NCBI GenBank assembly: GCA_022823825.1
Contig: JAJEHG010000034.1
Coordinates: 1-64,000, forward strand
Reading direction: 5' to 3'
Length of the DNA: 64,000 nt
DNA from: Nitrosopumilaceae archaeon
GTDB lineage: Archaea > Thermoproteota > Nitrososphaeria > Nitrososphaerales > Nitrosopumilaceae
The notes under the pieces were generated by a model. The model was not told the origin of the DNA. It was given only the letters and a program-made list of their open reading frames with translations, and did not search any database. Made by a program: the position numbers and the translations under genes. Below, piece after piece: positions 2,731 to 63,938 of this stretch (its first letter is position 1; each line of letters opens with the position of its first letter).

Positions 2731-2731
2731 G

Positions 2732-4018: not shown

Positions 4019-4050
4019 AGCATTTTAAGGCTGCAACCGGCCGGTGTGAC

Positions 4051-18090: not shown

Positions 18091-18188
18091 TAGCACCATG
18101 GAGCTGAAACATAAATGAGGCCTACCATACAAAAAACCGTGGCAAACTCAGTCCTATTTTATGGGGTCCACTCCAGTTTATGTTGATT

Positions 18189-46265: not shown

Positions 46266-46285
46266 GGTACCATATGTGCAGCCAG

Positions 46286-46294
46286 GATAAAAGG
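46286..46294 (-). promoter_or_regulatory. CCTTTTATC promoter box (VirB6-like gene)
   Basis: Third copy of CCTTTTATC, 21 nt before the GTG at 46265, on the minus strand. Confidence 0.6.
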
Positions 46295-46402
46295 CGCATC
46301 AGGCCGCCGGCAAGGTACCGGGAGAGTCGGGACACGCCGCCGGGACTGATCATGGATGCGGAACATGCTGGATTGATGTCGCCTGCCCATCATGCGCGCC
46401 CA

Positions 46403-47959: not shown

Positions 47960-48117
47960 TAATCCTGATGCTACGGTAAGTATTTAAGAAGCACGTGTGT
48001 GATATGCTGTCTTATCATCTAAATGCATGATATACTGTAACCGTAAGATTGTATGCAAACGCAGTATTTTTGGAACTGTGTGCCCGTCTCACTTATGTCG
48101 TGCATGTTATATTGTAA

Positions 48118-48897
48118 TTATATTCGTGAGTTCTGTTTACGCTTATTGATCCAAACAATCATATCCCTTCGGTCTAGCATTTGAGTTCCTGAATCAGTTC
48201 GTATATAGTAATTGTTTCTTACACCAGGAAGTAGTTTTGGTTCCATACATTTTGTATATTTAATGTCTTGATTAACAAAAACAGGAGCTGTAGATTCAAT
48301 AACATGTATTATGCAAATTTCCTTTTTCTCAATAGTTGCGAATGTTATGTTATAATTTGATTCCAGCGTATGATCGTTAAGTTTACTTTTAACATAATTA
48401 CGAATTTCTTGCTTAAATTTGTCCTGCTTGGTTTGGGTAACTCTTTCTGTCTCCACAAAATCATAATCTGATTTTAATCCAACAATCTGATTCGAGTCAT
48501 CTACTCCTATTATTAAACGACCTCCCTTGGTATTCATAAATGCCGCAATTTCTTTTACAGATTCATCACGCAAGCATTTTTCTTCTTTGTTGTTTAAAAC
48601 ATCTACTTTAAACGTATGTTTAAATTCCAAGGTCGTGGATTCGCCTTCTTGTATCATCTGACTTAATCTTTCGGGACTAATTTCATCAAAACTCAAAAGT
48701 TGTCTAGCATATCCAATTGTTCCATCAACTAGTCTGATCTTTATACCATGTGGAGAATATTCAACATTCTCGGGTGTCAAAATATGCTCCACAACTCCCT
48801 CGTTCCACGTCTCATTGTTGTCATCCTCATTTTTTACATACATGACTTGCATACCCTCGTAGATTTGATTGCGATGTTGAGCCCTTACGTCAGTCAT
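48118..48897 (-). CDS. AlbA_2/Schlafen-type putative DNA-binding protein
   Basis: About 260 residues. An N-terminal small beta-barrel (YEGMQVMYVKNEDDNNETWNEGVVEHIL) is followed by the AlbA_2/SLFN-type domain: RLSQMIQEGESTTLEFKHTF, then EIAAFMNTKGGRLIIGVDDSNQIVGL, and FVNQDIKYTKCM...YYIRTDSGTQML. Such domains occur in nucleic-acid-targeting effectors and regulators. The acidic E in TTLEFKH and the D in GVDD match positions conserved in the family. ATG at 48897. It diverges from the DUF262-DUF1524 gene through a 53-bp promoter and is equally AT-rich, so the two probably moved together. Confidence 0.7.
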   Translation of the reverse strand: MTDVRAQHRNQIYEGMQVMYVKNEDDNNETWNEGVVEHILTPENVEYSPHGIKIRLVDGTIGYARQLLSFDEISPERLSQMIQEGESTTLEFKHTFKVDVLNNKEEKCLRDESVKEIAAFMNTKGGRLIIGVDDSNQIVGLKSDYDFVETERVTQTKQDKFKQEIRNYVKSKLNDHTLESNYNITFATIEKKEICIIHVIESTAPVFVNQDIKYTKCMEPKLLPGVRNNYYIRTDSGTQMLDRRDMIVWINKRKQNSRI

Positions 48898-48950
48898 AAT
48901 TAGCACAAATTGTAAATAATATTTAAATAATATTGCCCAAACGCTTGGAC
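48898..48950. promoter_or_regulatory. Compact divergent promoter of the AT-rich defence pair
   Basis: The 53 bp between the two ATG codons are almost all A/T, with TTTAAATAATATT serving either strand (about 22 nt from 48897 and about 28 nt from 48951). Confidence 0.55.
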
Positions 48951-50777
48951 ATGGAACTTGGACAGAAGCGGCTGGAGAGTTTTTTTACTTGCAAGAGTAT
49001 GCGTGCATATGATATTCCCAAGTACCAACGTGGTTATTCTTGGGGCAAGGATCAAGTAATAGAGTTTTGGACAGATCTAACAGATCATGATGAAGCAGAT
49101 GGGAGTACCCATTTTTTTGGAACAGTGTATGTTAGCAAAATCCCAAATAGCAAAAATTCTAACATGAAAAAATTCAGAATAGTGGATGGACAACAACGAA
49201 TCACAACTTCATTAATTCTTCTTATCTGCATACGTGATTATCTTTGTAGTATAAAGGAAAAACTAAATGCAGATGTTGGGCGTTATATTGATGACCTAAA
49301 TCATCGACTATATGAGTATGATGACAAAAGACATACTTATGACCCAAATAAATTAATTATTACTTTAAGTCGTGTAAATAAAATCTTTTTTGAAACATAC
49401 ATAGCTCCTGAAGTATCAACTAACGAAAAAATTACTGCAACGGAATATGCAAACAATGATTCTGATCGTAACATTGCCGAAGCATATTCAATTTTAATGA
49501 AGTTTATACAGGAATACGGAAAAGACACGAACGGTAATTCTGTGACTAAATTAAATCATTTGATGTGGACATTATTTGACAGCTTTAAAATGATTGAAGT
49601 TGAGGTTCCAGATGAAATAGAGGCGCATGTAATGTTCAACTTAATCAATAACCGTGGTATAGGGTTAGATCAATCTGACTTGATCAAGAATTTACTGTTT
49701 GCTGAATTGGACAAAATATCCAGATCAAACAATTCTGAAAAATATATGAATGACTATGATGAGAAGTGGACCGATCTACGTAACAACATAACCGGCAAAG
49801 ATTATGCTGCTTATAACCACATGGATGACTTTTTCTACTATTATCTATCAATAGAATACTATCGCACTTTAAAATCGCTTACATCTAAACCCAAACTTAA
49901 CGACATGTCAAAGTCACTGGTTGCTCTACTTGTTTCTAAGAAAGCCTCAACAGTTATAGATGAACTGCTTGATTTGTCAATCACATTTGTCAAACTGAGA
50001 CGTCCTCATGAAAGCTTTGAACAATATCCTAATGTACAACACTATCTTAAACGAATCAAGGATTTGGATGCTAAATATGTATATCCAATAATGTTACTTG
50101 GATATGAATATCTCTGGCCGGGGAATAAAAAAGAATTCCAATTATTGGCAGAAATATGTTTTAAGTATCATGTCCGGGTCAAATCTCTTGGAATTGTACA
50201 ATTGGAGAAATATAGAGATACATTACAAAATATAATAGAATTGATTATGTCGAGGCCTCCAGAAAAAATGATTGGCCAAATAATTGATAAACTTACGTGC
50301 GATGATGATTCATATCCAAAAGAAGAAAAATTGCGACTATATTTAGAAGATTTTACAGTGACAGCGTCTAAATTGGCAATTGCGTTGTTAGATGAAATTG
50401 AAAGATCGTGTAATAAAGAAAAACAAAGAAAACCTGATGTTGTTATTGAACACATAATGCCAAGAAAAATAAGCAAAGACTGGATCATGTATATAAAAAC
50501 CAAAAATCCTCAAGAATCATTAAGTCCAAACTTGATTTCATCCAAATATTTTAATTGGCTTGGAAATCAAACATTATTGTCGAGTTCAAAAAATACTATT
50601 AATCCAAATAAATTATTTTCTGAGAAAAAAAGAATTTATAAAAATGATGATCATATAATTACAAACGAATTAAGTTCAAAACGTGAATGGACGGTAAATT
50701 TGATTAAAGAAAGACAAATTAAACTTACAAATGACTTAGTTAAAATTCTAGATCTGACAAAACTTTGTGATAAATGA
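48951..50777 (+). CDS. DUF262-DUF1524 fusion nuclease (GmrSD/SspE-like)
   Basis: A 608-residue protein. The N-terminal DUF262 (ParB-fold NTPase) carries IPKYQRGYSW and the hallmark DGQQRITTSLILL. A helical middle follows. The C-terminal DUF1524 HNH-type nuclease shows VIEHIMPRKISKDW and GNQTLLSSSKNTINPNKLFSEK. This is the single-chain architecture of modification-dependent GmrSD and of SspE, whose DUF262 DGQQR motif senses DNA phosphorothioation. Its place 200 bp upstream of a dnd operon makes a sulfur-sensing restriction role attractive. In the HNH motif the usual D(H) is E(H), to be checked. The ATG at 48951 suits the promoter; a TTG at 48933 is in frame. Very AT-rich. Confidence 0.85.
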   Translation: MELGQKRLESFFTCKSMRAYDIPKYQRGYSWGKDQVIEFWTDLTDHDEADGSTHFFGTVYVSKIPNSKNSNMKKFRIVDGQQRITTSLILLICIRDYLCSIKEKLNADVGRYIDDLNHRLYEYDDKRHTYDPNKLIITLSRVNKIFFETYIAPEVSTNEKITATEYANNDSDRNIAEAYSILMKFIQEYGKDTNGNSVTKLNHLMWTLFDSFKMIEVEVPDEIEAHVMFNLINNRGIGLDQSDLIKNLLFAELDKISRSNNSEKYMNDYDEKWTDLRNNITGKDYAAYNHMDDFFYYYLSIEYYRTLKSLTSKPKLNDMSKSLVALLVSKKASTVIDELLDLSITFVKLRRPHESFEQYPNVQHYLKRIKDLDAKYVYPIMLLGYEYLWPGNKKEFQLLAEICFKYHVRVKSLGIVQLEKYRDTLQNIIELIMSRPPEKMIGQIIDKLTCDDDSYPKEEKLRLYLEDFTVTASKLAIALLDEIERSCNKEKQRKPDVVIEHIMPRKISKDWIMYIKTKNPQESLSPNLISSKYFNWLGNQTLLSSSKNTINPNKLFSEKKRIYKNDDHIITNELSSKREWTVNLIKERQIKLTNDLVKILDLTKLCDK

Positions 50778-50978
50778 TTTCCATATATTTTTGTGTAATC
50801 TCCTTATTTGCTAATACTGTGTATGCGGTGTATGCATAACTAAACTTGTGTTATGTCGCAAGGCCTACGTCACCTTGTTTTTGCATCAATTCTGTTTTCT
50901 AATCTACACGAAACGACTTGCGCTATCCTCAAACTAGAGCATCATGATTTCTAGAAAGACGATAATTCTAATTAAAAG

Positions 50979-52094
50979 ATGCGTATAAAACTTTATAACA
51001 TGCTTCCAAGTCCTTATGACATGAGCAGATTGTCACATGTAGATGGCATCATGACTTTTTACGCAACAAGAGGCATGCAGGCAGGAAGAGAGTTCTATGT
51101 TGCCATGTGCGACTTTGCCACCGTCGTAAGGCACTTTGCGTTTGACAAGTCCTCCGGGATACCCCCAGAGATGAGGGCCCAGCGCAAGATACGGGAGTCG
51201 CGCATAAACAAGATATCGACATACATACTGGAGAATCCCACCAACTACGTGTTCTCCGCAATCACCGTCTCAGTGGACAAACCTATGAAGTTTGAGCCCA
51301 TCCCTTCAGATAGCTCTGAGAGTCAGGTGGGCAGAATAACAATACCGTCCAACGCCACCATGCTGGTAAATGACGGGCAGCACAGGTGTGCGGCAATAAG
51401 GGCAGCATACGATCAGAACAGGGAGATAGGAATCGAAAGAATACCTGTGGTGATATTTGAAGACAGGGGTTTGCAGCACAGCCAGCAGATGTTCGCTGAC
51501 TTGAACCAGAACGCGGTCAAGCCCACGAAGTCACTGGCATTGTTGTACGACCACCGGGACACGTTTGCCAGATTCGTAGTGACGCTGGCCAACGATGTCG
51601 AGATATTTGCAGGTCGGACGGAGATGGAAAAGACCAACATCTCAAACCGCGCAACCAGCGTGTTTACACTCAACGGCATCGGGGAGGCCACCCGCCGCCT
51701 CTTGGACATAAAGGCTACCACAAAGTCAATATCTGCTGAAAAACAAAAGCTGGCAGCCGAATACTGGAGTCACGTATCCAGAAACATCCCGCAGTGGAAC
51801 CTGCTAATGGACAAGAGGATGACCCCGTATGACATGAGAAGGCAGTACGTGCACGCCCACACGAACATACTAAACGCGCTAGGCATGGTAGGGTACGTAC
51901 TGACGCGGCGCAAGGACTGGAAGCAGAAGATAAGGGGGTTGCAGGACATAGAATGGTCCCGTAGCAGCCCCATCTGGCAGGACAAGGTCGTGATGGACGG
52001 CAAGATGCTAAAGAACCGGCTGGGCATCAAGCGCGCCGCAAACGAGATTCTGTTTAGGCTGGGCGTGCAGGACAGGGTGGAGGGTGGCATGTGA
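50979..52094 (+). CDS. dndB: DNA sulfur modification regulator DndB
   Basis: A 371-residue DGQHR-domain protein. DGQHRCAAIRAAYDQN (from residue 132) is the family signature, related to the ParB/DUF262 fold. FADLNQNAVKPTKSLALLYDHRD and ATRRLLDIK continue the DndB pattern. In bacteria DndB represses the dnd operon and can bind DNA, and its loss raises phosphorothioate levels; it is not essential for the chemistry. Here it is the first gene of the operon, and its stop overlaps the dndC ATG (TGATG). G+C content matches the host chromosome, unlike the AT-rich nuclease gene just upstream. Confidence 0.85.
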   Translation: MRIKLYNMLPSPYDMSRLSHVDGIMTFYATRGMQAGREFYVAMCDFATVVRHFAFDKSSGIPPEMRAQRKIRESRINKISTYILENPTNYVFSAITVSVDKPMKFEPIPSDSSESQVGRITIPSNATMLVNDGQHRCAAIRAAYDQNREIGIERIPVVIFEDRGLQHSQQMFADLNQNAVKPTKSLALLYDHRDTFARFVVTLANDVEIFAGRTEMEKTNISNRATSVFTLNGIGEATRRLLDIKATTKSISAEKQKLAAEYWSHVSRNIPQWNLLMDKRMTPYDMRRQYVHAHTNILNALGMVGYVLTRRKDWKQKIRGLQDIEWSRSSPIWQDKVVMDGKMLKNRLGIKRAANEILFRLGVQDRVEGGM

Positions 52095-53611
52095 TGGCCA
52101 GGTCGGTCTTTACAAAACGAACCCTCAAGGACATACACGACGAGATACGCTCAGTATACCTGGGCGACAACCGGCCCTGGATACTCGGGTTCAGCGGGGG
52201 CAAGGACTCCACCTGCATGGTGCAGCTGATATGGAGCGCGCTGTCCGAGCTGCCGCCGGACAAGCTTGCAAAGCGCATCCATATCATATCATCCGACACG
52301 CTTGTGGAATCCCCGAAGATCGTAGAACAGATAACCTCCACCCTTGACAGGATGGAAAAGGCGTCAAAAAGGACGCGCCTGCCGGTATCGACAAACCTGG
52401 TCAGGCCCGTCATAGAGGACACGTTCTGGGTGTGCCTGCTTGGCAAGGGGTTTCCGGCCCCGAGCAACCTGTTTCGGTGGTGCACGGAGCGCCTAAAGAT
52501 ACGAAACGCGGACAGGTTCATCCAAGAAAAGGTGTCAGAATACGGCGAGGCTGTAGTAGTACTCGGAACCAGAAAGGACGAGAGCGGCTCGAGGCAACAG
52601 CTGATGAACCTGTATGAGATCGAGGGCAGCCTCCTGTCGCGCCACTCCAAGTTTGCGCAGACATACGTGTACACGCCGCTACGCGACTTTACTGCAAAGG
52701 ACGTGTGGAGCTATCTACTGCAAAAGGAGAACCCGTGGGGCGCAAACAACCGTGACCTTCTGGCAGTATACCAAAATGCAAACGCATCCGAGTGCCCTCT
52801 GGTGGTCGACACCACCACGCCCTCCTGCGGCAACAGCCGGTTCGGATGCTGGACCTGCACGGTGGTGGAAGATGACACTTCCCTACGTAATACGATCGAG
52901 AGCGGCGAGGACTGGATGGAGCCGCTGCTTGAGCTGAGGGACGAGCTAAAGGCCACACAGGATCCCGCAGTAAGGAGAACGGTCAGGTCCCTCAAGCGGC
53001 GCACGGGGCAGATGAAGCTGATAGACGACTCGCGCAAAAAGGCCTTTGATGAAAAGATACAAGAGTCAAAGATGGAGCTGGAGGCGGCCGGCGGCAATGG
53101 AGAGATCACCGACCCGTATGCAAAGCTTGTGCCCGGACCCTACACGCTGGAGTTTTGTCGGGAATTTCTGGAAAAGATACTGGTGGCGCAAAAAAGGGTG
53201 AGGCAGGCAGGCCCCGACCCGCACCTGTGCCTCATACAGGACGAGGAGATTCACGAGATACAGCGCATATGGCGCATGGAGCGCGGCGACTGGAGGAACA
53301 CCGCATACCAGATATACGAAAGGGCGCTGGGCGAAAGGCTGGTTCCGCCCCAGGAAGACCTAGGCGGGTTCGGGGTGGTAGAGCAGGATCTGCTGGAGGA
53401 GATATGCAGCAAGCACAAGGTGCCCGCGCTGCTCGTATCAAAGCTTCTGAACACGGAGCACGAATCGCAGGGAATGGCCCAGCACTCCAGGATATATCCC
53501 AAGATCACAAAGGTGCTCTCAGAGGAGTGGCGCGACGACTTGGGCGCCATTGTACACGAGCTGGAGCAGCAGAAGAGCGAGATGAAGAAATTCGGAGGGG
53601 GCAGGGCGTGA
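52094..53611 (+). CDS. dndC: DndC, PAPS-reductase-like DNA sulfur-incorporation enzyme
   Basis: A 505-residue enzyme of the ATP-pyrophosphatase/PAPS reductase superfamily that activates the DNA backbone and inserts sulfur. PP-loop FSGGKDSTCMVQL (from about residue 33). Cysteines for a 4Fe-4S cluster are seen in FRWCTERLKI and SCGNSRFGCWTCTVVE. The C-terminal extension (about 280-505) contains VLVAQK/IQDEEIHEIQRIWRMERGDW, typical of DndC and needed for DndD/E partners. A GTG at 52091 directly precedes the ATG. The 3' end overlaps dndD by 4 bp. Confidence 0.92.
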   Translation: MARSVFTKRTLKDIHDEIRSVYLGDNRPWILGFSGGKDSTCMVQLIWSALSELPPDKLAKRIHIISSDTLVESPKIVEQITSTLDRMEKASKRTRLPVSTNLVRPVIEDTFWVCLLGKGFPAPSNLFRWCTERLKIRNADRFIQEKVSEYGEAVVVLGTRKDESGSRQQLMNLYEIEGSLLSRHSKFAQTYVYTPLRDFTAKDVWSYLLQKENPWGANNRDLLAVYQNANASECPLVVDTTTPSCGNSRFGCWTCTVVEDDTSLRNTIESGEDWMEPLLELRDELKATQDPAVRRTVRSLKRRTGQMKLIDDSRKKAFDEKIQESKMELEAAGGNGEITDPYAKLVPGPYTLEFCREFLEKILVAQKRVRQAGPDPHLCLIQDEEIHEIQRIWRMERGDWRNTAYQIYERALGERLVPPQEDLGGFGVVEQDLLEEICSKHKVPALLVSKLLNTEHESQGMAQHSRIYPKITKVLSEEWRDDLGAIVHELEQQKSEMKKFGGGRA

Positions 53612-55650
53612 TAATCACAAAGGTCACACTGACAGACTACGGGGTGTACGGCGGGAAAAACGAGTTTGATCTTGCTCCTGTGCAGGACAGGCCCATCATA
53701 CTTTTCGGCGGCACCAACGGCGCGGGCAAGACCACGCTCTTTGAGGCCATTCCACTGTGTTTGTACGGTATATCGTCGGCCGACAGGCGCATTACAAAAA
53801 AGGCGTACGAGGAGTTTCTGGCAAAAAAGATCCACAGGTACCAGAAGAGCTCCGTCATGGCGGACAGCGCCTCGGTGGCAGTCCAGTTCAAGTTCTACCA
53901 CAATTCAAAAGAGGTCGAATACAGGGTGGAGCGCTCGTGGCAAAAGTCATACGGCCGCACAGAGGAGCGCCTGGACGTCAAAAAACGCACGGGTTCGAGC
54001 GCCCGCTTTGGGCGCCTTGACACCATCGAGGCGTCTCACTGGCAGTCGTTCGTGTCCGACCTGATTCCAAAGGGGATACTCAGGCTGTTCTTCTTTGACG
54101 GTGAAAAGGTTGTAAAGATGGCAAAGGAGGGACTGGAGGATGCGGTCATCCGGGACTCTTTCAAGTCGCTTTTGGGAATCGAGGTTGCAGAGCAGCTGCA
54201 CGCTGACCTGCAGGTGAATCTGACAAGAAACCTGGCAGACGGCGACAAGCTGCTGCAGGAGGAGATTGCAAGGTGCGATGCGGAGCGCCAGGACACCGAC
54301 AAGAACGTGGAGCGCCTGTGCGAGCGACTTGCACAAAGGCAGACCGACATGGACGCGCTGTCAAACGAGATAGAGAGCGCCGAGTCTGACATATCAAAGA
54401 TAGGCGGAACGTTTGCAAGCGACAGGGACGGCGCAAAGACGCGGCTCGGCAATGCGAGGTCCGGATACGAGGTGGCGCGCAGGCGCATATCTGACATGTG
54501 CGCCGACGCGCTGCCGCTTGCTCTGATACCGAGCCATCTTGACGAGCTGCTAAAGCAGATGGATTCGGACTCTGCAATGTCCCAGGACAGGGCAGGCGCC
54601 AGGATGCTTGGTGAAAAGATCGGGGCAATGTCCGAGATTCTAAAGGACGCGTACGAAAACGCGGAACTGAGCTCCAGCCAAAAGCGCATCATAACGTCCT
54701 CCATGACAAGGTTCGTCAAGAAAGAAAAGGCCTCGGAGGCAGAGGGGACGCCGATGTTTGGGTTTTCAGAATACCAAACCGCTGCCATAAAGGGAATCAT
54801 CAGCAGGGCCAACGGCAAGCTGCTTCCCGCGCTCAGAAAGGAGACGGCCTCGCTCGTCAAATACGACAAGGAGATCACCACGCTAGAATCGGCCATTGCA
54901 AGCGCGCCAGCAGACGACGAGATCGGACCCCTCATCTCAAGGGTGGCCGAGCTAAACTCGCAACGGGGGGCGCTGCAAGAAGAGATGAACCACATGGGGG
55001 AGAAGATAGCAAGCAACAGGGCCCTGCTTCAGCACATCGACACGAAGATGCGCGACCTGGTATCAAAGGCGCACAAGGGCAAAAAGACGAGGGAGCAGAT
55101 ACGCCTCACGCACGAGGTGCAAAAGGTGCTGGAGGAGTTTATAGACAGGCTGCGGGTCAAAAAGATACGACTCCTCGAGCAGTACCTGCTTGACGCGGCC
55201 GGAATACTGCTGCACAAAAAGGACCTGATTCACAGGATAAGGATCGACCCAAAGTCTTTTGAGATCACCATATACGACCGGGACGGCAGGCCAAAGCCAA
55301 AGTACCTGCTTTCGGAAGGAGAAAAGCAGATGTTTGCAACGTCCGTCTTGTGGGCCCTTGCAAAGACGTCCGGCAGGCCGCTGCCGTTTATGATCGACAC
55401 GCCCCTTGCAAGGCTGGACGACGCGCACAGGACGAGCATCGTCAAGAGGTTCCTGCCGACCGCCTCACACCAGACACTGGTGTTCTCCACCGACACGGAG
55501 ATCGAGGAGCCCGAATACAAGATGATGTCCTCACATCTGGCAAAGTCGTATCTGCTTGCGTTTGACGAGGACGCCGGCTCCACGTCGCCGCGCAGCGGAT
55601 ACTTTTGGGATCGGGACGTGAGGGAGGATGACAAAGTTGCTGCGGTTTAA
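53608..55650 (+). CDS. dndD: DndD, SMC/Rad50-like ATPase
   Basis: A 680-residue ATPase thought to provide energy or DNA-structure changes for phosphorothioation. Head motifs: Walker A GGTNGAGKTT (about 34-43), the DndD-typical LRLFFFDGEKVVKMA, ABC-like signature LLSEGEKQMFATSVLWAL and Walker B PFMIDTPLARLDDAHR. Between the two halves lie coiled coils and a central hinge region (about 215-530). The GTG at 53608 overlaps the dndC stop (GTGA); the long upstream open frame is just the shadow of dndC. Its end overlaps dndE by 23 bp. Confidence 0.93.
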   Translation: MIITKVTLTDYGVYGGKNEFDLAPVQDRPIILFGGTNGAGKTTLFEAIPLCLYGISSADRRITKKAYEEFLAKKIHRYQKSSVMADSASVAVQFKFYHNSKEVEYRVERSWQKSYGRTEERLDVKKRTGSSARFGRLDTIEASHWQSFVSDLIPKGILRLFFFDGEKVVKMAKEGLEDAVIRDSFKSLLGIEVAEQLHADLQVNLTRNLADGDKLLQEEIARCDAERQDTDKNVERLCERLAQRQTDMDALSNEIESAESDISKIGGTFASDRDGAKTRLGNARSGYEVARRRISDMCADALPLALIPSHLDELLKQMDSDSAMSQDRAGARMLGEKIGAMSEILKDAYENAELSSSQKRIITSSMTRFVKKEKASEAEGTPMFGFSEYQTAAIKGIISRANGKLLPALRKETASLVKYDKEITTLESAIASAPADDEIGPLISRVAELNSQRGALQEEMNHMGEKIASNRALLQHIDTKMRDLVSKAHKGKKTREQIRLTHEVQKVLEEFIDRLRVKKIRLLEQYLLDAAGILLHKKDLIHRIRIDPKSFEITIYDRDGRPKPKYLLSEGEKQMFATSVLWALAKTSGRPLPFMIDTPLARLDDAHRTSIVKRFLPTASHQTLVFSTDTEIEEPEYKMMSSHLAKSYLLAFDEDAGSTSPRSGYFWDRDVREDDKVAAV

Positions 55651-56020
55651 CAGGCTGCGCATGAGCTACCGCTCGCAGAACCTGCTTGCGCAGCTAAAGT
55701 CCAGGACGGGCCTGACCCCCAACATTACCGGCAGGTTCGCCATATGCATGTCCCTGAACAACCGTTCCGTGCCCAATCCCGACGAGTTTGACGAAAAGGG
55801 ATCGGAGATACACCCGTCCGTGCTGTTTGGCGAGTATGAGGACGTGTTCATGGCGCTGATGATACAGAGGCTCAACCGCGACAGGCTGGATCCCAAGACA
55901 TACCTGAACCGCATGACGCGCGCCCACTTTAACAGGGGCGTGATAGCGCTGTTTGCGCGCATACACAACCTGTCAGACATCGAGAGGGTCATAGACGAGG
56001 AGCGTAACGCGGTTGGCTGA
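55628..56020 (+). CDS. dndE: DndE, nicked-DNA-binding phosphorothioation protein
   Basis: A small (130-residue) basic helical protein of the DndE/DUF1832 family: RMSYRSQNLLAQLKSRTGLTPNITGRFAICMSL at the N-terminus, then GSEIHPSVLFGEYEDVFMALMIQRL and HFNRGVIALFARI. DndE binds DNA, as a tetramer with affinity for nicks in the bacterial case, and is required for sulfur incorporation. ATG at 55628 is inside the end of dndD; the 3' end overlaps dndA by 8 bp. Confidence 0.9.
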   Translation: MTKLLRFNRLRMSYRSQNLLAQLKSRTGLTPNITGRFAICMSLNNRSVPNPDEFDEKGSEIHPSVLFGEYEDVFMALMIQRLNRDRLDPKTYLNRMTRAHFNRGVIALFARIHNLSDIERVIDEERNAVG

Positions 56021-57188
56021 CACCAACCTGCCCATATACATGGACTATCACGCCACGACGCCGCTTGACCGGCGCGTGCTTGATGAGATGATGCCATACT
56101 TTGCAGAAAAGTTTGGCAACGCGTCGAGCCTGGACCATCCGTACGGACACGACGCATCGGTGGCGGTGGAGGCGGCAAGGGAGCGGCTTGCCAGACTGAT
56201 AGGGGCCAGGAGCGGGCACGAGATTGTATTTACAAGCGGAGCCACGGAATCCGACAATCTGGCATTGACGGGCGCCATGGACGCGTACGCGGACAGGGGG
56301 GACCACATGATAACGTGCGTGACGGAGCACAAGGCGGTCCTTGACACCGCCAGGCACCTCGAATCCATTGGGAAAAAGGTCACGTACCTGCCGGTGGACA
56401 GACACGGGCACGTCTCCACGTCTGACATCAAAGACGCCATTACGGACAGGACCGTGCTGATATCCATAATGACTGCAAACAACGAGATCGGAACCATTGC
56501 AGATGTCAAGTCGATTGGGGGAGTGGCGCACGATCACAACGTACTGTTCCATACTGATGCGGCCCAGGCGGTGGGGCACATTCCAGTCGACGTCCAGGAC
56601 ATGAACATCGACCTGATGTCATTCTCATCGCACAAGATGTGCGGACCAAAAGGGGTAGGGGCTCTCTACATCAGAGCCATGAGGCCTAGGGTGCGGATCC
56701 TGCCGTCAATGCACGGGGGCGGCCAAGAGCGCTATATGCGGCCCGGAACCCTGAACGTGCCCGCCATAGTCGGGTTCGGAAAAGCTGCCGAGATAGCGCA
56801 AAAGGAGATGCCAGACGAAAACAAACGATTCCAGAAGTGGTCGACCGAGATAATCGACGCGCTCTCGGAGAGGGCGGGGGCGATTCACAACGGCGACCCG
56901 GACAATAGGCTTCCGCACAACATAAGCCTCACGTTCCCGGGGATAGACGGCAAGGCCATCATCAACTCTGTATCCGAGCGCATCGCAATATCCGCAGGAT
57001 CCGCGTGCACCGCCCAGACAGTCGAGCCGTCTCACGTGCTGCTAGCGCTGGGCATGGACGCAGAAGACGCGCATTCGTCCATACGGATAGGACTCGGAAG
57101 GTTCAACACCGAAGCAGAGGTGGGGCATGCCATAGACGCAATCTCAGGGGCGGTAAAGGATCTGAGGAGGATAAGCACACTTGCATGA
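56013..57188 (+). CDS. dndA: Cysteine desulfurase DndA
   Basis: A 391-residue PLP enzyme that supplies persulfide sulfur to DndC. NifS/IscS features: YMDYHATTPLD, FTSGATESDNLAL, HTDAAQAVGHIPVD, the PLP lysine in SFSSHKMCGPKGVGALY, and the mobile catalytic cysteine in SAGSACTAQTVEPSHVL. In many bacteria dndA is elsewhere or replaced by iscS; here it is last in the operon and overlaps dndE, so all five genes are one translationally linked unit. TTG start. Confidence 0.93.
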   Translation: MADTNLPIYMDYHATTPLDRRVLDEMMPYFAEKFGNASSLDHPYGHDASVAVEAARERLARLIGARSGHEIVFTSGATESDNLALTGAMDAYADRGDHMITCVTEHKAVLDTARHLESIGKKVTYLPVDRHGHVSTSDIKDAITDRTVLISIMTANNEIGTIADVKSIGGVAHDHNVLFHTDAAQAVGHIPVDVQDMNIDLMSFSSHKMCGPKGVGALYIRAMRPRVRILPSMHGGGQERYMRPGTLNVPAIVGFGKAAEIAQKEMPDENKRFQKWSTEIIDALSERAGAIHNGDPDNRLPHNISLTFPGIDGKAIINSVSERIAISAGSACTAQTVEPSHVLLALGMDAEDAHSSIRIGLGRFNTEAEVGHAIDAISGAVKDLRRISTLA

Positions 57189-57308: not shown

Positions 57309-58427
57309 ATGTCACACACAAATGATCCCGCGAGCAGGTTCAACCAGCTTGTTGAAGAGGCACTTGACTTGGTAAAGTCTAACCCAGACGGCATCTACAT
57401 GAGTGAGCTGAAGACACTGTTGAACACCTCTTCTGTGAAGATGGACGGCATTGCCACAAGGTTCAGAAGGATGGACGGCCTGACCGTAACAGAGGTTCGG
57501 CGTGACGGACAGCGGCCTGACTTTTTGTTCAAGTACGAAAGGCCGTGGGCTGAGAATGTACACGAAAGCCGTGCGAAGGCTGAATTTGCTGAAAATACGG
57601 CAGGCAAAGACGCGTCAAACACACAAGCCAAAAATTACTTTGAAGCATTGGCACGGCGGATGTTAGATGAGTGTCACGCAAGTCAAAAAACCATAGACAA
57701 AGATCTGCAAAAAGAGCTTACTGTGGAATTTTTTCGCGTCGGCTCGATTAATGCCATGGTGAAGAAATACCCAAGCATTCCAAAGGAGACGATAAAGCGC
57801 AACATACGAACCCCCCTACGTCTGCCAGAGAAACTACGAGTACTCAACGAAGAAGGGCTTCACCCAGACCCTCAGATCTCACTTTGGATTGCGCTTTTTG
57901 CGGTGAACCTGCACGACTGGGACGGTAGTGACGGTGACGCAGAAGATGTATTGCGAACCGCCGAGGGGATTTCAAAACATCTAAGCGCCGCTTCCCGTGA
58001 CGACGGGGACGAGTTGCGAAAGCACGCGTATCAAAAGGATGCTGCGCCTCCCGCAGATTCCATATCTACAGCCAATGCGGTGTGGATTGCAGTCGCGACT
58101 CTGCACAGAGAACGTGGACTGAAGATGGTGTTTTCAACCAACCAGATAATAGAAAGTATCCGGGAACAAAATCTGTGCAGTGTATCTGATTCCACTATTA
58201 GAACACATGTTTCGTCCCACTGCGTTGCAAACACCTCTGCCGCGGTCAAATACCCACACCGAAAGACATACCGCGTTGGACATGGCATGTACAGGCTATA
58301 CAAGAGGGGAGATCCGTACCACCCCACGAGGGAATCATGCCCGATTGCGCCTCTCCAGTTTCAGCTTCCGCACAGGTACAAGGATCTCAGGAAGTGGTAC
58401 GACGAGGAATACTGCGCTCAGGCGTGA
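57309..58427 (+). CDS. Winged-helix-containing protein next to the dnd operon
   Basis: A 372-residue protein. N-terminal winged-helix-like region (FNQLVEEALDLVKSNPDGIYMSELKTLLNTSSVKMDGIATRFRRM). The middle has a second HTH (VEFFRVGSINAMVKKYPSIPKETIKRNI). The C-terminal region (VFSTNQIIESIREQNLCSVSDSTIRTHVSSHCVANT, then RKTYRVGHGMYRLYKRGD) matches the look of a DUF7669-type DNA-reading domain found with restriction systems. It is separated from dndA by 120 bp with its own AT-rich upstream region, and overlaps the convergent MBL gene by 10 bp. Regulator or DNA-targeting factor of the island is inferred. Confidence 0.6.
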   Translation: MSHTNDPASRFNQLVEEALDLVKSNPDGIYMSELKTLLNTSSVKMDGIATRFRRMDGLTVTEVRRDGQRPDFLFKYERPWAENVHESRAKAEFAENTAGKDASNTQAKNYFEALARRMLDECHASQKTIDKDLQKELTVEFFRVGSINAMVKKYPSIPKETIKRNIRTPLRLPEKLRVLNEEGLHPDPQISLWIALFAVNLHDWDGSDGDAEDVLRTAEGISKHLSAASRDDGDELRKHAYQKDAAPPADSISTANAVWIAVATLHRERGLKMVFSTNQIIESIREQNLCSVSDSTIRTHVSSHCVANTSAAVKYPHRKTYRVGHGMYRLYKRGDPYHPTRESCPIAPLQFQLPHRYKDLRKWYDEEYCAQA

Positions 58428-59476
58428 ACGTCGTAGGGTGGCCTGTATTCTGTTTTGATGTCTGGAAACTTTTGCTCGATAAGCTTGGCGAGCCGCTTGG
58501 CATACCTGCTCCTGGAATAATCGGTGACCACGTATTTCGGGTTCACCGCCTCGATGTACTTGTATATTCCATTTATCGACGTGTGCGCGGCCAGGTTGAA
58601 TCTGCACCCTCCCTCAAACGGGATTATCGGGGAATCGGACTTTGTAAATCTGAATTGGTCGATAATTATTTTGTGCAGCGAACGCAGCTGTTCGTCAAGT
58701 ATGCTGGCCGTGGAGAATATGATGCATTTTTTGTTGTCGTTTATCAGTTTCCAATACTCGGGAGATTCATACTCTGTTATGTCGCGAAACTCGTACTTTT
58801 CGGCACGGTATATGCTGTGCAGCACCTTCTTTTGCCGTTTTTCCATGACAAACGCGATGCCGCTGTCCATCTTCTTGCCGTAGCCGACCTCAAAGTGGCG
58901 CACGATCTCTTGGAGCGTGCCGGAATGCCCCTGTATGACCACCTGCGGGCGCGACTCTAGGCGCTCCCCGACATACTCGAACATGCGGTTCTTGACAGAA
59001 TGCCTGTCTGTGTTTCCGTCGTGCCACGGATCACCGTGGCTTGAGTCGATTACCAGGTGGTCGGCCTGTCTGATCTGCACGTCGGGGTATCCAAAATCCC
59101 CCGAATAGAGCATGGTTTCTCCGTCCGACTCGATGTATACCTGCGAAGAGCCAGGTATGTGGTTTGCCTTTAGCAGCCGCAGGGCGCCGGCATCAAACCT
59201 GTACTCCGTATCATAGTCCTGGGTGACCCACTGCTCCCTGTACCTCATCCCAGGATGCAGCGCGTTGATCCCCTCGAAGGTTATTGGGTGTATTATGAGC
59301 ACGTTGTATGACGCTATGCATGACGGGATGCTTCTTATGTGATCGTCGTGAAAGTGGGAAAACGCCCCAATCAGCATTCCCTCCTTGTACCCGTCGCATG
59401 ATATTCCGTCAAGCCGGATGGCACAGTTTCTTGCAGAGTTGTCGTTGCAGACAACGTCTATGATACGCTCATTCAA
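58418..59476 (-). CDS. Metallo-beta-lactamase-fold hydrolase, beta-CASP-nuclease-like
   Basis: A 352-residue MBL-fold protein. The first metal motif is SHFHDDH (residues 40-46), then HIPGSSQVYIES (His 106), LYSGDFGYPD (Asp 127) and VIDSSHGDPWH. The spacing and the C-terminal segment YVVTDYSRSRYAKRLAKLIEQ resemble the CPSF/SNM1/Artemis-type nuclease branch rather than small-molecule hydrolases. Predicted DNA or RNA nuclease, possibly 5' exonuclease. Last gene of the SNF2-to-MBL operon; its start overlaps the stop of the preceding gene by 8 bp. A candidate effector of phosphorothioation-linked defence. Confidence 0.72.
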   Translation of the reverse strand: MNERIIDVVCNDNSARNCAIRLDGISCDGYKEGMLIGAFSHFHDDHIRSIPSCIASYNVLIIHPITFEGINALHPGMRYREQWVTQDYDTEYRFDAGALRLLKANHIPGSSQVYIESDGETMLYSGDFGYPDVQIRQADHLVIDSSHGDPWHDGNTDRHSVKNRMFEYVGERLESRPQVVIQGHSGTLQEIVRHFEVGYGKKMDSGIAFVMEKRQKKVLHSIYRAEKYEFRDITEYESPEYWKLINDNKKCIIFSTASILDEQLRSLHKIIIDQFRFTKSDSPIIPFEGGCRFNLAAHTSINGIYKYIEAVNPKYVVTDYSRSRYAKRLAKLIEQKFPDIKTEYRPPYDVHA

Positions 59477-60254
59477 TCCTGCTCTCCAAAAACCAATCTA
59501 GGAACTTTGTGTATGACGAACCTTTTTTGTATTGGTGCTCATAGAATGGTGCATATGCGTCCTCGTCCATGGATATTGCCATGACGGATTTGCCAACGTT
59601 GATGTCGTAGAATTCTCCCCCCAAGCCGCTCCGCAGCATGGCAAGCAGCTTTTCTCTGTGGTCTAGGTTGGATTCTATGAACCGGCGCAGTCTGTCATGG
59701 ACCTCGACTACAATGATGTGGGTCACTGCGTTCACTGGCTTGAGCTTGAGAACCTTCTCTATGCACTCCCTCATGGACAGGTCCGGGTTTTCGTTGCGCC
59801 ACGCCTTTATTCTCTTGACATCCTCCTTGCCGAGGATCCGTCTTTTGTCCTTGGAGCTCAGTATGGACTGTATGATCAGGTCCTGATCCTCCGGGGCCAT
59901 TGTTGAAAGCTGGGATATTGTCGAGAAGGGAATGTGCGGGTACTCGTCAGTTGACCACCCCGCCAGCTCCCTGCTTTTTGGGGACACCTTGAGCAAGTTT
60001 AGAAACAAGGTTATCTGAGACGTGTCGCGCGGTTTGTACATATTTGACGTGTCCTTCTGCTTGCCCAGATTCAGCCTCTCTGCAATCTTGTCTAGGCTCT
60101 CGCCCTCCTCGTCTATGAGGCGCCGAATGTACTCTGCGCATTGAACTGGTGACAGCGGGCGCTTTCTGCCCGGACCAAGCCCCTGCTGCCCCACACTGTT
60201 CAAGAGCTTGGAGTATGTCTGTACATCCATCACAAGCTTGCTTAATTCAATCAC
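59469..60254 (-). CDS. ParB-companion helical DNA-binding-like protein
   Basis: A 261-residue protein overlapping the ParB-like gene by 8 bp. SPVQCAEYIRRLIDEEGESLDKIAERLNLGKQKDTSNMYK followed by QITLFLNLLKVSPKSRELAGW resembles the helix-turn-helix region that follows the nuclease-like domain in ParB/KorB proteins, but no ParB N-domain is present. The C-terminus is an alpha/beta domain (NAVTHIIVVEVHDRLRRFIESNL, EFYDINVGKSVMAISMD). The two genes may together supply the parts of a split ParB-type complex. Confidence 0.6.
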   Translation of the reverse strand: MIELSKLVMDVQTYSKLLNSVGQQGLGPGRKRPLSPVQCAEYIRRLIDEEGESLDKIAERLNLGKQKDTSNMYKPRDTSQITLFLNLLKVSPKSRELAGWSTDEYPHIPFSTISQLSTMAPEDQDLIIQSILSSKDKRRILGKEDVKRIKAWRNENPDLSMRECIEKVLKLKPVNAVTHIIVVEVHDRLRRFIESNLDHREKLLAMLRSGLGGEFYDINVGKSVMAISMDEDAYAPFYEHQYKKGSSYTKFLDWFLESRIE

Positions 60255-61095
60255 CTATCTGGGCATAATCTCTTTCCACACCCTCCACAACGTACTGGGT
60301 GGCTCGCGCCTTTTCGGTGTCGCCGCTCTGTTCGGAAACTTTTTGGAGTTTTTCTGAGAGATCCGTGTCCAAGTCAATGTTCAGCGGCCGCTTGCGCCGT
60401 TTTACTGCGCGCGCCTCGATGTCGGTTACGCTGCCCCCGCGCGCTGCCTCTGCGGCAAGGTCTGCGGGATCATTCTCCGGCCTTGCCATCGCCCTTGCCA
60501 TCTCCAACACTTGGTCCTCGGGAACCGGGCCGTTTTTGGTGTACTGGAGCGCGTTAACTGCTCGAATTGCTATGTTTTCTGCCTTCTTTGGATTGGGATG
60601 GATTCCGCCCTCTTGGATTGCGGTCTTTAGCGTTTCAGGAAGCCTTGAGAGCCGGACGTACCTATCTACCATCCTCTTGCTGATGCCAAACTCCTGGCGC
60701 ACCATTTCATAGTCACCATACACGTTGTAAAGATCCGTCACTGCCTTTATCAGGTCCGGTTCGGTCATTGGAAGCTGTGTTATGTTCTCCGCAAGGGAGA
60801 GCGCCTTCTTTTTCTCATCAGTCTTCGGTTCTGGTATTATCTTGCACTGGATCTTGTCAAATCCCTCCCCGGGGTACTTGTCGTTGAGGTAGTGATGTGC
60901 GTTCAGCCTTCTCTGCCCGGTAAGTATCACGTACCGGGACTGCTCCGAATCATAGTATGCGGCAATTGGCTGCAACAGCCCGTTTGCCTTGATGTTTTCT
61001 GCCAGGTCTTCTATTCCCTGATCGATGTCGTGAATCCGCACGTTGTGCTTTTGCACCCTTATGCTGTCCAATGGTATGTCCTTGAACTCTTCCAT
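60247..61095 (-). CDS. ParB-like protein of the dnd island
   Basis: A 282-residue ParB/Spo0J-family protein. The N-terminal domain shows IPLDSIRVQKHNVRIHD, DLAENIKANGLLQPIAAYY, YVILTGQRRLNAHHYL (the GxRR nucleotide-handling motif) and ALSLAENITQLPMTEPD. The HTH is YEMVRQEFGISKRMVDRYVRLSRLP. ParB proteins are CTP-dependent DNA clamps; in a defence setting they can be DNA-scanning modules or nucleases. ATG at 61095 fits GCTTTTATTTGC 26 nt upstream, so this gene has its own promoter separate from the SNF2 operon. Confidence 0.82.
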   Translation of the reverse strand: MEEFKDIPLDSIRVQKHNVRIHDIDQGIEDLAENIKANGLLQPIAAYYDSEQSRYVILTGQRRLNAHHYLNDKYPGEGFDKIQCKIIPEPKTDEKKKALSLAENITQLPMTEPDLIKAVTDLYNVYGDYEMVRQEFGISKRMVDRYVRLSRLPETLKTAIQEGGIHPNPKKAENIAIRAVNALQYTKNGPVPEDQVLEMARAMARPENDPADLAAEAARGGSVTDIEARAVKRRKRPLNIDLDTDLSEKLQKVSEQSGDTEKARATQYVVEGVERDYAQIGD

Positions 61096-61398
61096 TGCAA
61101 GTGAATGTGGATTTGCAAATAAAAGCATTTTCTTGCAGATTGCGTAACCGCGTAGTCCAACCCCCCACAAAACTCAGACGCAAGTTTCATCATCTGCCTT
61201 TCGGGCATAGAGAGCTAACGGACACTAGACTGCTGTGCTAGGCTGCAACAGCCCATCTTATCCTCCGCTGATACTTGTACTCCCACACTGCTGTCGTTCT
61301 CGATACAAGCAGGAGAAAAGGACAGGCCATGTCATCTCGCAGTGGAATGACCCGGCTGATGACCGTACGAACCGGCGCAGTCACTATGTGGATCATGA
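61096..61398. other. Gap between the SNF2-partner and ParB-like genes
   Basis: About 300 bp containing the ParB-gene TATA box (GCTTTTATTTG, minus strand, near 61115-61127). No other gene or clear repeat was seen. Confidence 0.5.
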
Positions 61399-62175
61399 TT
61401 AGTGCAGGATTACCTCGCACGCCACAAGCTCGTATGATAGGACCACCCTGTGTTTTTTTTGCATAGTGTCCATCAAGCTTTTTTTCTCTTCTTCAAGGGC
61501 GTCCATCTTGTCCGCCGCCTGAAAGCGGAATTCCCGCACCCTGTCAGAATCGTTGGCTTCCCTGTCCTTGTGTTTTATGGAGTCGTCGAGCTCCCGTACG
61601 CGAAGGTCATACTTTCCTGCAAACATCTTCATGTCACCCCCGAACTTCCGGTTCGCGTCGCGTAGGAACGCAAAGGACGCGCCATCGTGCCGTTTTTGCA
61701 ACTCCTTTAGGGCCGCGCTGTATGTTCTTGTGACTTCGCCCGGATCCATCCAATCCAGTGCCCCGGCACCGTCCCCGCCACTTGAAATGTCCGTATCGGA
61801 TCCCAGAGTCAATTCCACGTCCACATGATCCATCAAAATCATGTCTGACCGGCCCGAGAAGCGCATAAAGAAATGGTAGCGTATTGTGCCGTTAGTACCA
61901 CTGTCGTCCGCGCGTTTTACTTTCACAGGGCCCTTGTTGGTGCAGATCTCTATGACTTGCGACAAAATCCTGCTGCCCGGTACCACCAGCTCACAACCAT
62001 GCTCTGGGTATATGTCACGATCAAATGCAACGCGCAGCTCCTGTGACCCAAACACGCGTCGGTGCGATTCCGGAACGCGTATTATGTGTGTGCCGTCGTC
62101 CGTACCTGCAATGTCTGCGCCTATGGCGCCAAAGAACCCCAGGACCAGATCCCGTATGTCTTCCTGCATGCTCAC
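61399..62175 (-). CDS. SNF2-helicase partner protein
   Basis: A 258-residue protein. An N-terminal alpha/beta domain (DLVLGFFGAIGADI, IIRVPESHRRVFGSQELRVAFDRD, CELVVPGSRILSQVIEIC) continues into a charged coiled coil (REANDSDRVREFRFQAADKMDALEEEKKSLMDTMQKKHR). Its GTG overlaps the helicase stop by 4 bp, so the two are made together and likely form a complex. Comparable small partners accompany SNF2 helicases in several defence systems, but I do not recognise the family. Confidence 0.65.
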   Translation of the reverse strand: MSMQEDIRDLVLGFFGAIGADIAGTDDGTHIIRVPESHRRVFGSQELRVAFDRDIYPEHGCELVVPGSRILSQVIEICTNKGPVKVKRADDSGTNGTIRYHFFMRFSGRSDMILMDHVDVELTLGSDTDISSGGDGAGALDWMDPGEVTRTYSAALKELQKRHDGASFAFLRDANRKFGGDMKMFAGKYDLRVRELDDSIKHKDREANDSDRVREFRFQAADKMDALEEEKKSLMDTMQKKHRVVLSYELVACEVILH

Positions 62176-63938
62176 GACTCACCTCCCTTCAGTACGGACA
62201 GATCAAAGTTTCTGAACACGTCAGCGTTAAAGTCCAGTACCGCGTCGGCCGCCCTCTCTTTTTGGGCGTTCCAGTCGTCTCCCAGCGCGGAGAATCTGTT
62301 TCTCCGCTCCTGCTCGCCTTCCCCGTTCATGTATTCGGTGAACCACGTACGCGACGAGCCACCCGCCCACGAGTCTTCAAACATGAGATCCATGTCTCCA
62401 AGTGCCATCCTGAACAGGTTGATCTTCACGTACAGCAGCTCGAGTATGTACGCCTCAATCGTGCCCGCAAGCGCGAGGTTGAATATGCGGACGTTGTCTT
62501 TCTGGCCTATCCGGTGGACGCGCCCTATCCTCTGCTCCACGCGCATCGGGTTCCACGGGAGGTCGTAGTTTACGATATTGTGACAGAACTGAAAGTTCTG
62601 GCCCTCCCCGCCCGCGCTTGTGGAGACCATGACGCATGCGTCCCCCTTGAACCGGGTTACGGACTCCCGCTTCTCTTCTGGACTCATCCTGCCGTTGAAC
62701 AGCGTCACGGAGTGCCCGTTTTTTTGCAGATGCTCCGCGATATAGTCCTGCGTGGCGTAAAATTCCGTGAATATCAGGAATTTTGAGCGGCTGCCGCCGA
62801 TTATCCTCTGCAGTTCTGACAGCTTGGAGTCTTCCCGGATTGCAGACGCGGCCGACACGAGCTCTGCATGCCTCCCCTCCGAGATCAGTCCCTTGGCCTT
62901 CATCTTGTAGAGCGCCCTCCTTGATGCTGCCGTGCTGCTTGACGCCAGCCTCTGGTAGATCATCAGGGCAAACACGTCGTTGCCTGCCTTGTACTGCGCC
63001 CTGATAATGTTGGTTATTGCGCGATACAGGCCGGACTCTTCGTTGCTGGGCGTGAGAATGCTGGTATGCGGGATTCTGTCGGTGAATTTTATGTATTTTT
63101 TTGCTTCGCTACGGGTCGTGCGTATGATGAATTTGGACAGGGTTTCCTGCAGCCTGTCTCGCATGAAGGGCCGGATCTTTCTTGATTCCGCGTCGTCGAC
63201 ATACGTGTCGCGGAACCGCGCCCATGTCCCAAGGTATCCTGGGCGCAGCAGCTCGATCAGGTTGTACATCTCCTCAAGGTTGTTCTGAACCGGAGTGGCG
63301 GTGAGCAGCAACAGGTTGCGCTTTGGAAGATCCCTTACCAGCTTGTGCTTGGCCGTCTCTGCGTTCTTCATGCTGTGGGCCTCGTCTACCACTACCATGT
63401 CCCAGTACGTGGAGCTGAGCGGTATGGACTGGCTTGGGTATATTGCAGAGGAATGAGACATCAGGAGAAGGTTGTGTGACTGCACGTCCTTGAATCTTGG
63501 ATCGTCTCTATGTATGACAAAGTCCAGATCGAACTTGCTTGACATCTCGTCCTGCCACTGGGGCAGAAGGGACGGGGGCGCAAGAATGAGTATGCTTCTG
63601 GCGAGCCCGGTAACTAGGAACTCCTTGATTAGTATGCCGGCTTCGACCGTCTTTCCCAATCCCACCTCGTCCGCAAGCATGCCGGACCCGCCAAGCTCGT
63701 TTTTGATCTTTCGCGCTGCCAGGATCTGGTGATCAAAGACGCTCACGTTCTCGCTTGCCCTGACTGCCTCTGTAATGGACAGATCCTGCTCCTGTAGGCG
63801 GAGGTACAGGCCGTATGCCTTTAGTGCGAGTGTCAAGAACTCGGGGTTTTGTGCCGTGCCGGTGCGCAGCCTGTCTTTTATGCCGAACTTGTCTGGAAAT
63901 ATAGTTCTGACATCTTCAATATGCGGTGTTTCGTGCAT
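62172..63938 (-). CDS. SNF2-family helicase/translocase
   Basis: A 588-residue superfamily 2 ATPase of the SNF2/RapA-HepA type. Motif I ADEVGLGKT (89-97), Ia LILAPPSLLPQW, II DEAH (185-188), III LTATPVQN, V STSAGGEGQNF, VI QRIGRVHRIGQ (469-479). No nuclease domain is fused. It leads a convergent operon towards the dnd genes. In phosphorothioation systems helicase-containing modules act in the interference step, so this is the probable motor of the second arm. ATG at 63938. Confidence 0.88.
   Translation of the reverse strand: MHETPHIEDVRTIFPDKFGIKDRLRTGTAQNPEFLTLALKAYGLYLRLQEQDLSITEAVRASENVSVFDHQILAARKIKNELGGSGMLADEVGLGKTVEAGILIKEFLVTGLARSILILAPPSLLPQWQDEMSSKFDLDFVIHRDDPRFKDVQSHNLLLMSHSSAIYPSQSIPLSSTYWDMVVVDEAHSMKNAETAKHKLVRDLPKRNLLLLTATPVQNNLEEMYNLIELLRPGYLGTWARFRDTYVDDAESRKIRPFMRDRLQETLSKFIIRTTRSEAKKYIKFTDRIPHTSILTPSNEESGLYRAITNIIRAQYKAGNDVFALMIYQRLASSSTAASRRALYKMKAKGLISEGRHAELVSAASAIREDSKLSELQRIIGGSRSKFLIFTEFYATQDYIAEHLQKNGHSVTLFNGRMSPEEKRESVTRFKGDACVMVSTSAGGEGQNFQFCHNIVNYDLPWNPMRVEQRIGRVHRIGQKDNVRIFNLALAGTIEAYILELLYVKINLFRMALGDMDLMFEDSWAGGSSRTWFTEYMNGEGEQERRNRFSALGDDWNAQKERAADAVLDFNADVFRNFDLSVLKGGES

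What the first reader, a model, noticed from the sequence alone, without database searches (positions are those of the whole stretch)
50979..57188. Complete, fully overlapping dndB-C-D-E-A phosphorothioation operon in an ammonia-oxidising archaeon
All five genes overlap (TGATG, GTGA, 23 bp, 8 bp) and all key motifs are present: DGQHR, PP-loop plus Fe-S cysteines, Walker A/signature/Walker B, DndE family pattern, catalytic Cys of the desulfurase. Having dndA inside the operon at the 3' end is unlike most bacterial loci, where dndA is divergent or absent, and resembles the order reported for haloarchaea. Composition matches the host, so it is an old resident or came from a similar genome. It predicts sulfur-modified chromosomal DNA in this lineage.
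Basis: partly seen in the sequence, partly recalled or inferred. Interest (0 to 1): 0.8.

Follow-up and report, generated by a model that had tools for sequence, protein, structure and literature searches.

The report
DNA-sulfur operon with candidate nuclease cassettes
An ammonia-oxidiser-family archaeon carries an ordinary set of genes for putting sulfur into its DNA backbone, and beside it lies a little-known cassette (a ParB-like clamp, a DNA-binding protein, a nuclease and a helicase) that travels with these sulfur genes in unrelated microbes and is probably the part that attacks unmarked DNA.

Summary
The dndB-C-D-E-A operon is real, intact and overlaps as described. Profile searches assign all five proteins. 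The operon itself is ordinary. Dnd in Thaumarchaeota has been published. dndA directly after dndE is the rule here: 19 of 23 archaeal and 32 of 52 bacterial loci among the 80 nearest DndC relatives. DndC groups with thaumarchaeal DndC. The host is about 60% GC and the operon 52-58%.

Downstream, on the minus strand (58418-63938), is SNF2 helicase - 258-aa protein - ParB - HTH protein "X" - MBL/beta-CASP nuclease. Searching 85 Poribacteria genomes with the MBL alone found five further copies. All five sit beside dndCDE, four with a complete SNF2-ParB-X-MBL cassette. A sixth MBL-found copy, in a Cenarchaeum genome, sits beside a second dnd operon. One genome without detected DndC has the triad. 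I found no paper or PADLOC model describing the cassette. Upstream is a DUF262/DUF1524 nuclease whose best PDB match is the phosphorothioate-sensing DndI, paired with a DUF2196-AlbA_2 gene. No DndH or PbeC homologue was found. Best reading: a phosphorothioation operon with two candidate restriction modules, one apparently undescribed. Function is untested.

The parts
48118..48906 (-). DUF2196 + SLFN_AlbA_2 protein (262 aa), divergent from the GmrSD gene; candidate accessory effector
   Evidence: PF04326 2.7e-18 and PF09962 2.2e-11; relatives near dnd in L038, L081, L109, L128
48933..50777 (+). GmrSD-type DUF262 + DUF1524 nuclease (614 aa), DndI-like; 32% GC; ends 201 bp before dndB
   Evidence: PF03235 4e-35, PF07510 4.7e-14; only PDB matches DndI 9JFL 5.7e-12 and SspE 6JIV 0.003; DGQQR, P-x-Y-Q-R and E-H...N motifs; homologues 33-35% identical beside dndB in L072 and L076
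50979..52094 (+). dndB (DGQHR / ParB-superfamily regulator)
   Evidence: TIGR03233 1.7e-108, over cut-off
52091..53611 (+). dndC (PP-loop, Fe-S sulfurtransferase); start GTG 52091 or ATG 52094
   Evidence: TIGR03183 4e-150, over cut-off; invariant PP-loop and cysteines
53608..55650 (+). dndD (ABC/SMC-like ATPase), GTG start
   Evidence: TIGR03185 1e-143, over cut-off
55628..56020 (+). dndE
   Evidence: PF08870 3.6e-22, PADLOC DndE 8e-44, PDB 7X4E 7e-17
56013..57188 (+). dndA (cysteine desulfurase, IscS/DndA type)
   Evidence: PADLOC DndA 5e-158, TIGR03235 1.7e-121
57309..58427 (+). 372-aa protein with DUF7669 and a ParB-type HTH stretch; role unknown, possibly part of the locus
   Evidence: PF24706 2.7e-13; weak similarity to the ParB at 60247
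58418..59476 (-). MBL/beta-CASP-fold nuclease of the dnd-linked cassette
   Evidence: profile A4 matches CPSF/FttA/Cas14/SNM1/Artemis nucleases; AF2 model pLDDT 78, Foldseek 1e-16 to CPSF73, FttA, Cas14
59469..60254 (-). protein X: ParB-like HTH protein of the cassette; 8-bp overlap with the MBL gene
   Evidence: alignment A7; relative in L093 matches HTH_ParB; weak Foldseek matches to Spo0J/ParB
60247..61170 (-). ParB/Noc-like protein (ParB_N + HTH, GQRR and EN motifs); 8-bp overlap with X; the start may be internal
   Evidence: PF02195; TIGR00180 3.9e-15; profile A6 hits Noc 7OL9 5e-22 and CTP-binding ParB structures
61399..62175 (-). 258-aa protein of unknown family between SNF2 and ParB
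   Evidence: no Pfam, NCBIfam or PADLOC match; 4-bp overlap with the SNF2 gene
62172..63938 (-). SNF2-family helicase/translocase (588 aa), first gene of the minus-strand cassette; only about 25% identical to the bacterial cassette SNF2
   Evidence: PF00176 3e-36, DrmD/BrxHI-like, comparison

Best explanation
This is a phosphorothioation-based restriction-modification island of about 16 kb (48.1-63.9 kb). DndA takes sulfur from cysteine and loads DndC. The DndCDE complex places it on the DNA backbone at a short motif, and DndB limits the operon. These steps are inferred from well-characterised homologues. The partner modules are inferred. (1) A divergent pair upstream: a DndI-like DUF262/DUF1524 nickase, expected to leave phosphorothioated DNA and nick unmarked DNA, and an AlbA_2-domain protein. 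(2) Downstream, a minus-strand cassette SNF2 - P258 - ParB - X - MBL. Here ParB and X would load on DNA as a clamp or sensor that reads phosphorothioate or DNA state, SNF2 would translocate, and the MBL/beta-CASP protein would cut unmarked invading DNA. Shown here: identity of the genes, integrity of the dnd operon, and recurrent linkage of the cassette to dndCDE in three phyla. Not shown: phosphorothioate in the DNA, any nuclease activity, any antiviral effect.
For: Dnd assignments. Only DndI and SspE match the GmrSD protein among PDB chains; its relatives at 33-35% identity sit beside dndB in L072 and L076. Cassette linkage: inside the dnd locus of a Gemmatimonadaceae genome (C-D-E-SNF2-ParB-X-MBL-A, L093); beside dndCDE in Poribacteria L095. 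An MBL-only search of 85 Poribacteria genomes gave five more copies, all beside dndCDE (L187-L191); all six MBL+ genomes are among the 28 Dnd+ genomes (hypergeometric 9e-4). An MBL hit 640 kb from the first dnd locus in Cenarchaeum OY282369 lies beside a second dndBCDE (L179). One match in 298 Gemmatimonadota, the dnd-linked one. The MBL fold is beta-CASP nuclease-like. The PbeC model finds only dndD in this genome and no DndH homologue was found, so another partner is expected.
Against: Defence genes cluster, so adjacency alone does not prove joint function. The triad also occurs in G059, where the DndC search listed no match (L167). The window's SNF2 is only about 25% identical to the bacterial cassette SNF2s and P258 has no relative in the fetched loci. 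MBL, X and ParB of the window are 20-29% identical to the bacterial ones. The DndH search had silent controls and the genome is 90% complete, so absence is not proven. The Poribacteria genomes are one lineage, so the five copies are not fully independent.
Confidence: 0.68

Rival explanations
1. A plain dndBCDEA modification operon with a DndI-like nuclease as its only partner; the downstream ParB-X-MBL-SNF2 genes are an unrelated partition or defence module that happens to sit in the same island.
For: DndBCDE-DndI is an experimentally shown defence system (PMC11662687) and the GmrSD gene matches DndI best. The triad exists without a detected DndC in G059.
Against: Copies found by the MBL sequence alone are beside dnd in 6 of 6 cases, and in L093 the cassette is embedded between dndE and dndA.
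Confidence: 0.2
2. The operon modifies DNA for regulatory or epigenetic reasons and has no restriction partner; the flanking genes are scrap of a defence island.
For: No DndH or PbeC found; Dnd modification genes are often decoupled from DndFGH (PMC10853773).
Against: Two flanking nuclease modules with intact frames and conserved motifs recur beside dnd in other lineages.
Confidence: 0.09
3. The cassette genes are regulators of the dnd operon, with ParB/X standing in for DndB and the MBL protein acting on RNA like CPSF-type nucleases.
For: No full-length DndB was seen in the cassette-bearing bacterial loci or in the N. ianthellae locus; the nearest MBL folds include RNA nucleases.
Against: The window and L179 carry both dndB and the cassette; SNF2 translocases point to DNA; poribacterial MBL aligns along the DNA exonuclease family TIGR04122 (below cut-off).
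Confidence: 0.1

Closest known systems
dndABCDE phosphorothioation operon; thaumarchaeal examples in Ca. Nitrosomarinus catalina, N. salaria, Nitrosospongia ianthellae, N. cymbastelae (PMC6790972, PMC7848895)
   Same: All five genes, the B-C-D-E-A order, conserved motifs; DndC in the same clade
   Different: High-GC host; flanked by a DndI-like pair and a ParB-X-MBL-SNF2 cassette
IscS-DndBCDE-DndI (Salmonella, PMC11662687)
   Same: dndBCDE next to a DUF262 + DUF1524 protein with DGQQR, P-x-Y-Q and HNH-type motifs
   Different: dndA in the operon; no DndH found; nuclease gene upstream in AT-rich DNA and paired with a DUF2196-AlbA_2 gene; distant in sequence
DndCDEA-PbeABCD of haloarchaea (PMC6459918)
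   Same: dndC-D-E-A order in archaea
   Different: Here dndB is present and no PbeC homologue was found besides DndD
DndBCDE-DndFGH
   Same: Modification operon
   Different: No DndH homologue found
MBL/beta-CASP nucleases (CPSF73, FttA, Cas14, SNM1/Artemis, ligase-associated exonuclease)
   Same: Fold and metal-binding HxHxDH motif of the cassette MBL protein
   Different: Operonic with ParB and X, beside dnd genes; far below equivalog cut-offs

Membership tests
Dnd phosphorothioation operon | DndC with PP-loop and Fe-S cysteines | tested here: met
   TIGR03183 over cut-off; SGGKDS and five Cys invariant in eight loci
Dnd phosphorothioation operon | DndD ABC ATPase next to DndE | tested here: met
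   TIGR03185 over cut-off; PF08870 and 7X4E for DndE
Dnd phosphorothioation operon | Cysteine desulfurase (DndA or IscS) | tested here: met
   PADLOC DndA 5e-158; PLP Lys and catalytic Cys present; below NCBIfam cut-offs of both DndA and IscS
Dnd phosphorothioation operon | DndB with DGQHR | tested here: met
   TIGR03233 over cut-off
Dnd phosphorothioation operon | Phosphorothioate in genomic DNA | not testable with these tools
   needs LC-MS or iodine cleavage
DndI (DndBCDE-DndI) | DUF262 + DUF1524 domains with DGQQR and HNH motifs, adjacent to dndBCDE | tested here: met
   201 bp upstream of dndB
DndI (DndBCDE-DndI) | Phosphorothioate-stimulated ATPase and nickase | not testable with these tools
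   biochemistry needed
DndFGH restriction module | DndH homologue in the genome | tested here: inconclusive
   no candidate, but the controls were silent and the genome is 90% complete
PbeABCD module | CxC-type ABC ATPase PbeC besides DndD | tested here: not met
   PbeC model hits only dndD in the genome
SspABCD-SspE | SspBCD modification genes | tested here: not met
   modification genes are DndBCDE; SspE is only the second PDB match of the GmrSD protein
Dnd-linked ParB-X-MBL cassette (defined here) | ParB, X and MBL genes in that order beside dndCDE | tested here: met
   window 58418-61170; L093, L095, L179, L187-L191
Dnd-linked ParB-X-MBL cassette (defined here) | SNF2 gene of the bacterial cassette subfamily upstream of ParB | tested here: inconclusive
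   SNF2 in the same place but only about 25% identical

The most novel reading that the evidence does not exclude
SNF2-ParB-X-MBL is an undescribed restriction or effector module of phosphorothioation systems, shared by Poribacteria, Gemmatimonadota and Nitrososphaerota, in which a ParB-type clamp and a beta-CASP nuclease replace DndFGH, PbeABCD or SspE.
Probability: 0.55. Interest if true: 0.72.

Novelty: new variant of a known kind. Interest (0 to 1): 0.5.

Why it matters
The operon alone adds one more case to a known pattern. The cassette matters more. Many dnd modification operons lack DndFGH, and what reads and enforces the sulfur mark there is an open question. A ParB-type clamp coupled to a beta-CASP nuclease would be a new way to read a backbone mark, and it is testable in a laboratory strain.

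Tried and rejected
Unusual operon order: rejected, since B-C-D-E-A is the rule in this DndC clade. Recent bacterial import of the operon: not supported by the DndC tree. Foreign or misassembled contig: not supported, since sampled host contigs are about 60% GC like most of the window. MBL relatives on plasmids or phages: three weak plasmid hits, no phage hit. GmrSD in sampled Nitrososphaerota: rare, the other hits only 24-34% identical. Papers on the cassette: none found with the terms tried (supplements were not readable). The fold of X gave only weak ParB-like matches. Ahlgren 2017 was not held and is cited through other papers.
Full report
Observation. The operon is present exactly as described. 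All five proteins are assigned by NCBIfam, Pfam and PADLOC. DndB, DndC and DndD pass curated cut-offs. DndE is 0.7 bits under one cut-off but far over Pfam's, and its best solved relative is the archaeal DndE 7X4E. DndA falls between the DndA and IscS equivalogs. Key residues are intact.

How ordinary is it? A search of 398 Nitrososphaerota genomes found DndC over cut-off in eight of them, and every locus long enough to judge keeps B-C-D-E-A. Of the 80 nearest DndC loci in genome contigs, 75 show a dndE. Among these, dndA directly follows dndE in 19 of 23 archaeal and 32 of 52 bacterial cases; two of the four archaeal exceptions are loci that are too short. Dnd in thaumarchaea has been published repeatedly (PMC6790972, PMC7848895, PMC12780485; Ahlgren 2017 as cited there). 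The DndC tree puts the window in a fully supported 20-row thaumarchaeal clade (SH-aLRT 100, quick method). Two MAG contigs labelled bacterial (L076, L109) also fall in it.

Upstream module. A DUF262/DUF1524 protein lies 201 bp before dndB on the same strand, in 32% GC DNA. Among all PDB chains only DndI (9JFL, 5.7e-12) and SspE (0.003) match it, and both are phosphorothioate-sensing nucleases (PMC11662687). P-x-Y-Q-R, DGQQR and the E-H...N residues are conserved. The P-x-Y-Q and DGQQR motifs are general to DUF262 (own knowledge), so they do not prove phosphorothioate sensing. Homologues 33-35% identical sit beside dndB in another Nitrosopumilaceae genome (L072) and in a MAG contig (L076); in L072 the gene is again much more AT-rich than its locus (37% against 55%). 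Divergent from it is a DUF2196-AlbA_2 gene, whose relatives occur near dnd in four other loci, in L109 directly before a GmrSD gene.

Downstream module. Clustering of neighbour genes showed that the minus-strand genes MBL, X and ParB of the window recur beside dnd in a Gemmatimonadaceae genome (L093, embedded between dndE and dndA with SNF2), a Poribacteria genome (L095) and, for ParB and X, Nitrosospongia ianthellae (L078). These were found by looking near dnd, so I tested the link the other way round. Searching genomes with the MBL or X sequence alone gave: Cenarchaeum OY282369, a copy 640 kb from its first dnd locus that proved to lie beside a second dndBCDE; 298 Gemmatimonadota, only the dnd-linked copy; 85 Poribacteria, five new copies, all beside dndC-D-E, four with SNF2-ParB-X-MBL complete and one (L189) at a contig end. 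All six MBL+ Poribacteria are among the 28 Dnd+ genomes (hypergeometric 9e-4). The one clear exception is G059 (L167), which has ParB-X-MBL but was not listed in the DndC search. Several Poribacteria dnd loci without the cassette carry a second DndD-like ATPase in the opposite orientation instead, as expected if modules are exchanged. That reading is an inference.

What the cassette proteins are. The MBL protein has the HxHxDH motif, profile matches to FttA, Cas14, CPSF73 and SNM1/Artemis and a fairly confident beta-CASP-like model (pLDDT 78; Foldseek 1e-16). ParB matches CTP-binding ParB/Noc structures and keeps GQRR. X carries a ParB-type HTH. The window's SNF2 is DrmD/BrxHI-like and only about 25% identical to the bacterial cassette SNF2s, which are 50-76% identical to one another. 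Its kinship as a cassette member is therefore open; only its position matches.

Mechanism. DndA-E placing sulfur is inferred by homology. That the flanking modules read the mark and attack unmarked DNA is inferred from domain content, linkage and the DndI precedent. No DndH homologue (controls silent) and no PbeC beyond DndD were found in the 90%-complete genome. None of this has been tested in the laboratory.

Verdict. The locus is more interesting than reported because of the ParB-X-MBL(-SNF2) cassette, which to the extent of these searches has no name.

Noticed in passing
window 18000-22500 and 48100-51000: AT-rich islands (32-37% GC) in a 60% GC genome; the second holds the AlbA_2 and GmrSD genes.
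   Followed up: partly
window 44847-47959 (-): A T2SSE/VirB11-like ATPase and a large membrane protein next to the island suggest secretion or conjugation-type genes nearby.
   Followed up: no
L076 and L109: MAG contigs labelled Deltaproteobacteria and Gammaproteobacteria carry DndC inside the thaumarchaeal clade: either transfer between symbionts or misbinned contigs.
   Followed up: partly
L081 and L179 (OY282369.1, uncultured Cenarchaeum sp.): One 3.2 Mb Cenarchaeum chromosome has two dnd loci, one with AlbA_2 and GmrSD genes, one with the MBL cassette whose ParB is split by a transposase-like gene.
   Followed up: partly
L129 (Ca. Nitrosopumilus salaria BD31) 2512-4118: dndC is split into two frames, so it may be broken or carry a sequencing error.
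   Followed up: no
L035 19376-19630 (+), G174: A ParB fragment at the contig end beside the dnd operon of another genome of the same genus, possibly the same cassette.
   Followed up: no
L221 3563-4369 (+), Poribacteria G743: A cassette-type ParB about 2.7 kb from dndD without X or MBL.
   Followed up: no
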